Source: Heliocidaris tuberculata (taxonomy: Eukaryota; Echinodermata; Echinoidea; Camarodonta; Echinometridae). From it: a stretch of 64,000 bases of DNA. Each line of letters starts with the position of its first letter. Within the stretch, counting starts at the first letter, position 1. A program made the position numbers and the translations under genes. The stretch spans positions 7,832,421 through 7,896,420 of the forward strand of contig CM046852.1 in NCBI GenBank assembly GCA_025618425.1, in the 5' to 3' direction. The notes under the pieces are model-generated. The model was given only the letters and a program-made list of their open reading frames with translations. It searched no databases and had not been told where the DNA came from. Positions 9,818 through 23,505 of this stretch are shown here, in pieces.

Positions 9818-9880
9818 CTGGTGTTGTACTGGTTTCCGTTGAAACACGCCCGGGAGTAGAGCTCGGCGTCGGTTCGTTTA
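9818..9880 (-). CDS. Gene B exon 3: Thr/Ser/Pro-rich stalk
   Basis: A 63-nt phase 1-1 exon with acceptor TTTGTTTCAG|TA and donor G|GTAATA. It encodes VNEPTPSSTPGRVSTETSTT followed by Pro, a hydroxyl-rich, O-glycosylation-type hinge as found between Ig domains and membranes. It is supported by phase match to the Ig exon and by composition. It is too short for homology-free certainty. Confidence 0.65.
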
Positions 9881-12800
9881 CTGAAACAAAAATTTCGAGA
9901 ACAAAATAGGATCAAAATATTATGAATAATCTCGGTGAGATTTAATTTCAAATGAATACTAAGTAGCAAAAAGGATTTTAAAAACAAACTTTAAAATGTT
10001 TATTATGTATGAGACGTGGGCCTACTAAGGAAACGCTCTTTTTTGTTTCATTTGATCGAAATTTCTTGACATTTTAATATTAATAGTAATTGTAAGTTCT
10101 AAACTTTACATTCAACATTATTACAATAAATACATTCAAGGAAGAATGTACAGAAGATAATAGAACATATATTCATGTTATGAAAGTACCACATGCAGCT
10201 TCTTTATTAGAATGTGCAAAGACGGAAATTAATACCATACATTGCACACCCCCAATGGCTGATTTTTGTTTTGTTTGAATTTTTATTTCTGTCTTGTTAT
10301 TTTTGTTTTTGCTTTTATTGAGTTTTTCTTTTTGTTATGTCTTATTTTATTTGTTTGTTTGTTTGAGGTTGTTGTTGTTTTTGTGTTTTTTAATGGTGGA
10401 GGGTGGACCCCCATCATGATCATTAATGGTATACTCCCGTCCGGGGAAGGGAAGTTGTAGAAAGATAATAAGGAGTTTTCGAATGCGTCAACGTGAGCGC
10501 CGTCCTAGATCTTCCCAGCTACAATGGACTGCTTTGTGTTAACTGCATACAAAGTAGGTGAAGTGAGGCACCGCGCTTTGTGCAAGAACGGCTCACCCGT
10601 TCACTGGCTTGAGGACGGGTGAGCCGTTCCTGCACAAAGCGCGGCTTGAGGACGGGTGAGCCTAGAACTAGAGCATGTAGAGCGAGTTATTCAGGGACAT
10701 ATTTCTCATGGAAGTTGTCCGATAGATGTTAGTTGACCGAGGGACTAGTCGTACTTGATCCCTGCTCCATTAAAGCCTGGCTCTCACGTGCACGAGGCAT
10801 TATTTGCTGACGTTATAGGACCGCGTCAGTGACTCGTACGGTCTTTTGCGCGTCATGAAAGAGTGATATCGTTTACAAAGTTATTGCAAAACGAACAGTG
10901 CAAACAATACAGTTAATAATTTGCGTATGGGTTAACTGCCTTCATAGGCTAGATTAGCGCAGGTACTGACGCAATCGAGATATTAAAAATACATGTACAT
11001 TATTTTGCTCATGTATAACTTTGTACACTCTTATTGAAAATGTTGGAAATAAATTTCTGGAAATTGAAATGAATTGAATTGTGAGCCGGGCTTAATATGG
11101 CACCATCATCATCATTATATATCATCGCGAAGGAGACTTACCAATTTCCAAAACCGAGATGTTGCGCCAAAAAGAACTCGTACAGCCGTTACTAGTTTGG
11201 CATATAGAGTATTGGCCAGCGTCTACCTGCGTGACACCGTGGACGAGAAGCACGCATATTTCACAAGTTGTATCAAGTTCTTGGCGGAGCGGGTCGTCTT
11301 GTGGAGCAACGGTCATTTGACAGTACCCATGTATATGATCAAGGGTGCACTCCGGGTTCGGAGCGGATAAATTGAAGCTCTGCGGCAGGGTGCATGATGG
11401 TTTTTGGGATTTGGCACAAAATTCAAAGGGGATGGTCGCAGTGCCTCCTACACTGGCCAGCTCCTTGCTTTGTAGGGCAACTATACCTATTAACAGAGAG
11501 AGAGAGAGAGAGAGGGGGTGGGAGAGAGAGAGAGAGAGAGAGAGGATGAAGTATATATGCTTCAAGTGCATTACTTTAACAAACACATGCATACAGTATT
11601 ATTTCAATGATTATCATGAAAACATAGAAAATAATGGCACAGTCACATATTGACGATTTAGCCAGCGTATGCCCGACGTATCAGAATTTCTCTAAAACGC
11701 TGGCATACGCTGAAACTATCGATATTTTTTTCAATTTGATAAATATACATAACGTATTAGTAACTTATATAGAACGTTTCGATAACTTATAGAAACGAAT
11801 GCGTAGCGTGTTGCCGGCGTTCACAACTTACGCCCAACTATAGTCTAACTTATGCACAGCGTTGGCGATTGGCGACCGTTGGCGATTTAGCCAGCGTATG
11901 CCGACGTATGAAAAATTTGGCAAATACGCTGGCGTACGTTGAATACGTTATGGGTAAGTTTTGTATAAGTTAAGAGCACGCTGGTATACGTCGTAGTACG
12001 GCGAGGTCGTCGAAAAATTTTGTGCTAAAACGCCAAGGTGTGATAGCTACATGAGATTCAATAGGTTGACAGGTAAAAATAGTGCCAGCATGTTACAAAT
12101 AACAAGAGATACATGTATATAGAACTACTAGGTGTAACCCCCCCCCAAAAAAAAACAAAACAAAAAAAAACAACAAACAAACAAACAAACAAACAAAAAA
12201 CAAAAAAAACAAAAAAAAACAGGTATTTTAAAATTTCGATCGTTAATAACTCAAAAGCTACCATTTTTATCAAACTGAAGTTTCACAATGTAAACATGGT
12301 AAAGTTGAAGGATGTCAAATTCATTTGAAGTTTTGTGAAATTTCCTTCATTAATATTCTTAAAATAATATTCTGAATATTTAATTAGATTTTCAGTTCTT
12401 AAAAAAAAATTGAGGCCTCAAACTTGGTGTGTGTGTGTGTGTGTGTGTAACTATATATCAGTAATATATACAGAACATAACAATACCATTGTGCATAGTA
12501 CCTGTCATTTCTGTCATGCTTTTGCTTTCCAGTGTCATTAATAATTCATGACTGGGTAAAAAAAAGAGGTGCTCTAAAAATTTCAGCTGAAATGCACAAT
12601 AACCTTTTGTTTTGCTATGAATTGATTTCTGTTACACACATATTTTGCAGCCTTGATTTCTTCAAAAAGTGGAAATCTGATTACATATTCAGAGCATTGT
12701 TTTAAGAAGAGTATTCAAAGAAATTTCATAAAGCCTACTCCAAATAAGTTTGACAACCTTCAACTTTACCATGTGAAAGCTTCAGTCTGATATGAGTTAT

Positions 12801-23107: not shown

Positions 23108-23409
23108 CTTAAGACAAGATGGTCGCGAAATACTAAAACTTTAAAAGTAAAACTCGCTGATTCTATTCTAGTAAACCGTCCCTTTCTTCTTACTCGGGTA
23201 TTTATGATGATATGAATTATGAGTGTGTTAGAGCAAAGGACTTTGCATGTTTCTTCCGTAATGGCTCAGGAAGTTTAGAATGTCAAAATCATTTATTTGC
23301 TCAACGAAGCCAAACAAAACAAAACAAATTCAGCCTGCTCAACAATGGTGTACGACTACAGAGAATTAGCACATTTTCTCTCAGGACTCAGTCTAGGCTT
23401 GTAGAAGTT

Positions 23410-23505
23410 TCTTCAAGTCAGCCAAAAAAATATTCCATTAACTGCCACTTGTCTTCCCATCGATATAAAAAACAGGTTGATAAATAACTCGAAGAACTTG
23501 AAAAA
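23410..23505 (-). pseudogene. Relic of a terminal exon (gene C)
   Basis: The minus-strand sequence TTTTTTTCAAGTTCTTCGAG, continuing through TTTATCAACCTG, aligns with the acceptor and start of gene A's terminal exon at 16,269. It has a small deletion and further changes that break the frame. Because it lies just upstream of gene A's leader exon, exactly as gene A's last exon lies upstream of gene B, it looks like the tail of a third tandem family member that has decayed. Confidence 0.5.

What the first reader, a model, noticed from the sequence alone, without database searches (positions are those of the whole stretch)
9818..23505. Tandem family of leader-plus-Ig genes, possibly a fast-changing recognition cluster
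Two signal-peptide exons 7.4 kb apart (MASSQIRAF and MASSSRRAF starts, same length, same phase 1 donor GTAAGTAAA) head separate genes. The downstream one joins a cysteine-rich Ig exon and a mucin-like stalk. Local segmental duplications and element insertions fill the introns. This is the genomic signature of an expanding surface or secreted receptor family, as seen in invertebrate immune loci; the immune role is inference.
Basis: partly seen in the sequence, partly recalled or inferred. Interest (0 to 1): 0.75.

Follow-up and report, generated by a model that had tools for sequence, protein, structure and literature searches.

The report
One Ig receptor gene, two leaders
The stretch holds one ordinary-looking sea-urchin-type cell-surface receptor gene with a single cysteine-rich immunoglobulin domain and a second, duplicated start exon, rather than a tandem family of separate fast-changing immune genes.

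Summary
On the minus strand, leader A (15665-15566), an eight-cysteine Ig-like exon (11486-11142) and a short Ser/Thr-rich stalk exon (9880-9818) join in frame with three exons left of the window. Together they give a 296-residue type I membrane protein. Its homologue is Strongylocentrotus purpuratus LOC100891469 (57% identical over the Ig domain). No transcript was available.

Leader B (23107-23005) is a diverged local copy of leader A, with traces of a shared 5' flank and intron start. Its codon-position pattern suggests coding constraint. No Ig-like exon was found between B and A, and homology searches found only this one exon of its type in the 897-Mb assembly. B is therefore best read as an alternative first exon of the same gene (inferred).

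A distant relative (like LOC115925162) lies about 72 kb away on the same strand. Its apparent second copy lies in a 35-kb, 99.6% repeat split by 500 N, probably an assembly artefact. Purple urchin has four related protein models, one chimeric, so a small family exists. Rapid expansion is not seen here, and the immune role is untested. Ordinary to mildly interesting.

The parts
15566..15665 (-). Exon 1A: start codon and signal peptide (MASSSRRAFPGQVTIPRVICIFVLLNQSVMAMS), phase-1 donor GTAAGTAAA
   Evidence: best 10-residue hydropathy mean 2.49
23005..23107 (-). Exon 1B: paralogous leader (MASSQIRAFLAPGKVHIVVCVAVFALAQSDQVIS), phase-1 donor GTAAGTAAA; proposed alternative first exon of the same gene
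   Evidence: (hydropathy mean 3.40)
11142..11486 (-). Exon 2: cysteine-rich Ig-like domain, 8 conserved cysteines, symmetric phase 1-1
9818..9880 (-). Exon 3: Ser/Thr/Pro-rich stalk, phase 1-1; the gene continues left of the window in exon 4 (C21:7832395-7832297), exon 5 (7831146-7831094, first half of the transmembrane helix) and exon 6 (7826921-7826691, second half and tail, stop)
   Evidence: alignment to P0001
15394..15451 (-). Intron patch downstream of exon 1A, duplicated at 22493-22549 (85% over 59 columns)
   Evidence: score 67 against a maximum of 31 in 100 shuffles
22493..22549 (-). Intron patch downstream of exon 1B, copy of 15394-15451
16248..16286 (-). 5' flank patch of leader A, duplicated at 23484-23526 (possible shared promoter element; role not tested)
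   Evidence: score 39 against a maximum of 27 in 100 shuffles
23484..23526 (-). 5' flank patch of leader B, copy of 16248-16286

Best explanation
This is one gene for a single-pass (type I) membrane receptor or adhesion protein: cleaved signal peptide, one cysteine-rich Ig-fold domain, a short glycosylatable stalk, a transmembrane helix split over two exons, and a 64-residue tail without tyrosine. A local duplication copied its 5' flank, first exon and the start of intron 1. The gene now has two leader exons, B and A, each proposed to be used from its own promoter and spliced in phase 1 to the same Ig exon. Because the leader is cleaved off, both transcripts would deliver essentially the same mature receptor, and the duplication would change where and when the gene is on. 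Shown by sequence: exons, phases, homology, paralogy of the leaders. Inferred: transcription from B, splicing of B to the Ig exon, separate promoters, cell-surface location, ligand binding by the Ig domain.
For: Six exons with GT-AG splice sites and matching phases give one open frame of 296 residues, and exon 1B in place of 1A gives an equally open 297-residue frame. Full-length collinearity with LOC100891469 includes the transmembrane motif VGIP. P0001 at E up to 10 found five matches genome-wide; the Ig exon (E 3.5e-38) is the only significant one and the other four have E 3.5 to 7.9. As a control, P0004 found five exon matches at 37-71% identity (E 1.9e-4 or better) and one chance-like match (E 1.76). 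No body exon found between the leaders. The leader duplication is collinear in three patches. Leaders A and B resemble each other more than either resembles the S. purpuratus leader (scores 57, 29, 12; shuffles reaching them 0, 14 and 312 of 1000), which suggests a lineage-specific duplication. Identity by codon position 22/31, 23/31 and 13/31 implies protein-level constraint (one-sided Fisher p 0.004; 20 of 2000 neutral simulations as extreme). The upstream neighbour, a HINT1-like gene on the same strand, ends at 27960.
Against: No transcript was available, so use of leader B is not shown. The codon-position test rests on 31 codons and an amino-acid alignment. In a substitution-only simulation at 67% and 75% identity, an open frame with ATG, GT and a hydrophobic core survives by chance in 2.3% and 5.6% of runs, so survival of B without selection is unlikely but possible. 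Leader B is not more like the S. purpuratus leader than shuffles are (312 of 1000). A short-peptide genome search with leader B failed to return leader A, so it cannot exclude further leaders elsewhere. The P0001 search did not list this gene's own exons 1 and 3-6, so it misses short, weakly conserved exons.
Confidence: 0.6

Rival explanations
1. Leader B is a relic: the gene, or its 5' end, was duplicated in tandem and the second body was lost, leaving a dead or silent leader exon.
For: No Ig, stalk or transmembrane exon found between B and A. About 6 kb separate the duplicated blocks, largely repeats and simple sequence.
Against: The ATG, frame, hydrophobic core and donor are all intact at 58/93 DNA identity. 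Codon-position bias in 31 codons. Chance survival 2.3-5.6% in simulation.
Confidence: 0.24
2. Leader B heads a second gene whose downstream exons are too diverged, or of another kind, to be recognised; it would be nested in or precede gene A.
Against: No family-like exon found in the 7.3 kb between the leaders, and no exon fitting the D-x-[AG]-x-[YF]-x(1,2)-C scan in 284 kb apart from this gene and the two copies of the neighbour.
Confidence: 0.1
3. The locus is an expanding immune receptor family, caught here as a small cluster.
For: Four related S. purpuratus models, two on contigs of the same length; a distant relative about 72 kb away here; Ig domains 81/111 identical between two S. purpuratus models under one locus name.
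Against: One Ig exon of this type found in this genome. The extra copy of the neighbour sits in a 99.6% repeat divided by 500 N. No data on expression or polymorphism.
Confidence: 0.06

Closest known systems
S. purpuratus LOC100891469 (P0001, P0002) with LOC105441295 (P0003) and LOC115925162 (P0004), all uncharacterized
   Same: Same domain order as P0001 and P0002, eight cysteines conserved in both, collinear stalk and transmembrane segments; P0001 is the likely orthologue.
   Different: S. purpuratus shows two bodies with nearly the same leader (38/39); here two leaders and one body. P0003 joins a P0001-like Ig half and stalk to a P0004-like transmembrane part (38/47 and 72/104).
TIM (HAVCR) family of vertebrates
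   Same: Works-like comparison: one V-like Ig domain with extra cysteines on a Ser/Thr/Pro-rich stalk, single transmembrane helix, short tail (TIM structure: passages of PMC4904032).
   Different: No TIM chain among the 11 PDB profile matches; the positions where I expect the usual B-F strand cysteines carry F20 and I94 here; the stalk is short (22 Ser/Thr and 6 Pro in 62 residues).
IgLON genes Lsamp, Ntm, Opcml (twin promoters 1a/1b)
   Same: Alternative first exons encode alternative signal peptides that precede the same Ig protein, with identical processed N-termini (passages of PMC5288359).
   Different: IgLONs have three Ig domains and a GPI anchor; alternative use is shown by transcripts there and only inferred here.

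Membership tests
Immunoglobulin fold | Ig beta-sandwich | tested here: inconclusive
Immunoglobulin superfamily, V-set or I-set | Significant Pfam V-set or I-set match | tested here: not met
   None for the window exon; its one weak match was LEAP-2, E 0.16, below cut-off, and nothing. P0002 weakly hits I-set, 15.4 bits against a cut-off of 23.7.
Immunoglobulin superfamily, V-set or I-set | Canonical B-F cysteine pair (Y-x-C in strand F; pattern recalled) | tested here: not met
   Strand F reads Y-S-I-C and strand B I-P-F-E-F-C, so the cysteines are displaced from the usual places; actual disulfides unknown.
TIM family | IgV domain with four conserved cysteines that bridge CC' and FG loops, plus mucin domain | tested here: inconclusive
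   Extra cysteines and a short stalk are present, but no homology to TIM was found and the pairing is unknown.
Twin-promoter genes with alternative leaders (IgLON type) | Transcripts from both first exons that share the body | not testable with these tools
   No RNA data; phases allow it.
Expanding tandem immune family (185/333-like situation) | Several linked, similar copies in the genome | tested here: not met
   One Ig exon of this type and one distant relative, listed twice because of the 35-kb repeat. Counts are lower bounds.

The most novel reading that the evidence does not exclude
The locus works as a mix-and-match receptor gene. Tandem leader/promoter exons and tandem Ig bodies, joined by phase-1 introns (here the four introns from the leader to exon 5), are re-paired by splicing or recombination between lineages: two leaders with one body here; in S. 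purpuratus one near-identical leader with two diverged bodies, and a chimera (P0003) joining the Ig half of one gene to the membrane part of its neighbour. The domain itself would be an echinoid Ig subclass that has lost the canonical disulfide and is held by displaced cysteines.
Probability: 0.12. Interest if true: 0.6.

Novelty: new member of a known kind. Interest (0 to 1): 0.33.

Why it matters
It replaces the idea of a tandem immune-gene expansion with a specific, testable gene model: one receptor, two leaders. It also describes a sea-urchin-type single-Ig receptor whose homologues are unnamed in the databases and which lacks the usual Ig cysteine positions. If leader B is used, it is a clean case of promoter-plus-signal-peptide duplication creating a twin-promoter Ig gene. 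If the S. purpuratus re-pairing of leaders and bodies is real, the locus would be a small natural experiment in exon shuffling of surface receptors. Otherwise it is a routine annotation.

Tried and rejected
Rejected: two separate genes (no body exon found after leader B). Rejected: a third leader at 7613 (minus), which also begins MASS; the frame closes after 26 residues, I saw no fitting donor by eye, and I take it for chance. Rejected: real tandem duplication of the neighbouring Ig gene, because the 35.4-kb copies are 99.6% identical and divided by exactly 500 N; an unmerged assembly overlap is more likely, though reads were not checked. Not counted as a patch of the leader duplication: a third DNA match (16748-16794 with 22869-22916, 78%), which is AT-rich and off the diagonal.

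Led nowhere: the structure from two sequences was poor (pLDDT 42.4). Pfam at E 0.01 recognised none of eight other window ORFs. PDB sequence search with P0004 gave nothing; with alignment A2 it gave titin (E 0.15) and CD163 (E 0.44), both weak. Paper searches for the locus names found none; five subject searches were read as listings, none showed a study of this gene, and two of them led to the papers of which I read passages. Species of the window not identified; 'sea urchin' is inferred because all four homologues found are S. purpuratus. I did not test absence of the gene in other echinoderm genomes; none were at hand.

Limits: the output was cut; its lines on the transmembrane part were partly lost and the exons were redone. 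The genome search scores only first-look candidates, so counts are lower bounds. I searched the genome with the window Ig exon, P0001, P0004 and leader B; queries with P0002, P0003 and a leader DNA pattern did not complete. The first motif pattern (Y-x-C) listed nothing, not even this exon; I widened it to one or two residues and changed the open-frame filter.

Full report
What is there. The window is C21:7832421-7896420 of an 897-Mb, 69-contig assembly. On its minus strand the two leader exons are at 15665-15566 (A, 100 nt) and 23107-23005 (B, 103 nt), each ending in phase 1 at GTAAGTAAA. The Ig-like exon is 11486-11142 and the stalk exon 9880-9818, both phase 1-1. With the flanking DNA and the S. 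purpuratus protein P0001 as a guide, three further exons were placed left of the window: C21:7832395-7832297, 7831146-7831094 and 7826921-7826691. All phases agree and the joined frame is open for 296 residues with leader A, 297 with leader B. The 7.4-kb spacing is right; equal leader length is not.

Protein. Signal peptide; 114-residue cysteine-rich domain; a 62-residue stalk (22 Ser/Thr, 6 Pro); one transmembrane helix; a basic juxtamembrane stretch (RRRR) and, counted from it, a 64-residue tail without tyrosine, so no ITIM or ITAM in this protein (read); P0001 has one tail tyrosine, in SPYADT. Identity to P0001 is 43% overall and 57% over the Ig domain. All eight cysteines of the domain (23, 31, 46, 55, 74, 77, 95, 101) are conserved in P0001 and P0002.

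One gene or two? One search covered the 7.3 kb between leaders B and A with the body of this protein and P0001-P0004: four hits, E 0.68-0.89, none convincing. A scan of 284 kb on both strands for D-x-[AG]-x-[YF]-x(1,2)-C with at least 35 open codons upstream gave three places: this exon and two copies of a neighbour's exon. Genome-wide, the window exon and P0001 found only this exon as a significant match. P0004 found five exon matches at 37-71% identity, so paralogues of that closeness should have been seen, although the P0001 search did not list this gene's own short exons. The leader-B peptide found only itself and missed leader A, so short-peptide searches are no evidence against other leaders.

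The leader duplication. A and B share three collinear patches above all of 100 shuffles: 5' flank (score 39 against a maximum of 27), exon (30 against 24) and intron start (67 against 31). Codon-aligned identity is 58/93, by position 22/31, 23/31 and 13/31; one-sided Fisher p 0.004, and 20 of 2000 neutral simulations reach the observed difference. Substitution-only decay to 67% or 75% identity keeps ATG, frame, donor and a hydrophobic core in 2.3% and 5.6% of simulations. A and B are closer to each other than to the S. purpuratus leader, and B is no closer to that leader than shuffles are. I therefore favour a working alternative first exon that arose in this lineage. The mature protein would hardly change, as described for the twin-promoter IgLON genes (PMC5288359, passages read).

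Neighbourhood. Upstream of leader B lies a HINT1-like gene on the same strand (33447-27960). About 72 kb downstream of exon 6 lies a P0004-like Ig gene, same strand: Ig exon at C21:7754120-7754359 and again at 7718282-7718671, with a tail exon at 7670834-7671052. The two copies lie in a 35.4-kb direct repeat of 99.6% identity with 500 N between them, which looks like an unmerged overlap.

Relatives. Three protein searches gave four S. purpuratus models and no other species. P0001 and P0002 carry the same locus name; their leaders are 38/39 identical but Ig 81/111, stalk 39/55 and membrane part with tail 40/66 (segment borders are mine). P0003 is P0001-like in residues 1-52 (38/47) and P0004-like after that (72/104). 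These could be real exon re-pairing or gene-model errors; no S. purpuratus DNA was at hand. This is the basis of the novel case.

Verdict. Observation partly confirmed; interpretation partly supported. It is a single-Ig receptor gene of a small family known here from two sea-urchin-type genomes, with a duplicated first exon. Nothing was found in print for the locus names (PMC open-licence library only); subject searches were read as listings. The TIM comparison rests on passages of PMC4904032.

Noticed in passing
left of the window, C21 about 7716963-7752302 and 7752803-7788126: A 35.4-kb direct repeat, 99.6% identical, with exactly 500 N between the copies; probably a false duplication in the assembly.
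   Followed up: partly
   Followed up: partly
window 20446-21202: Inverted, palindromic repeats built on TTCTTGATATCAAGAA-like units within the stretch between the leaders.
   Followed up: no
left of the window, about 27.4-22.5 kb and 36.4-35.0 kb before base 1: Tandem arrays with spacings of about 215 bp and 131 bp, 84-95% alike.
   Followed up: no
S. purpuratus P0003 (LOC105441295): Protein model that looks like a chimera of the two neighbouring gene types; real gene or model error not settled.
   Followed up: partly
window 30311-30760: A 224-bp unit in two tandem copies, 95% alike, inside the span of the HINT1-like gene.
   Followed up: no
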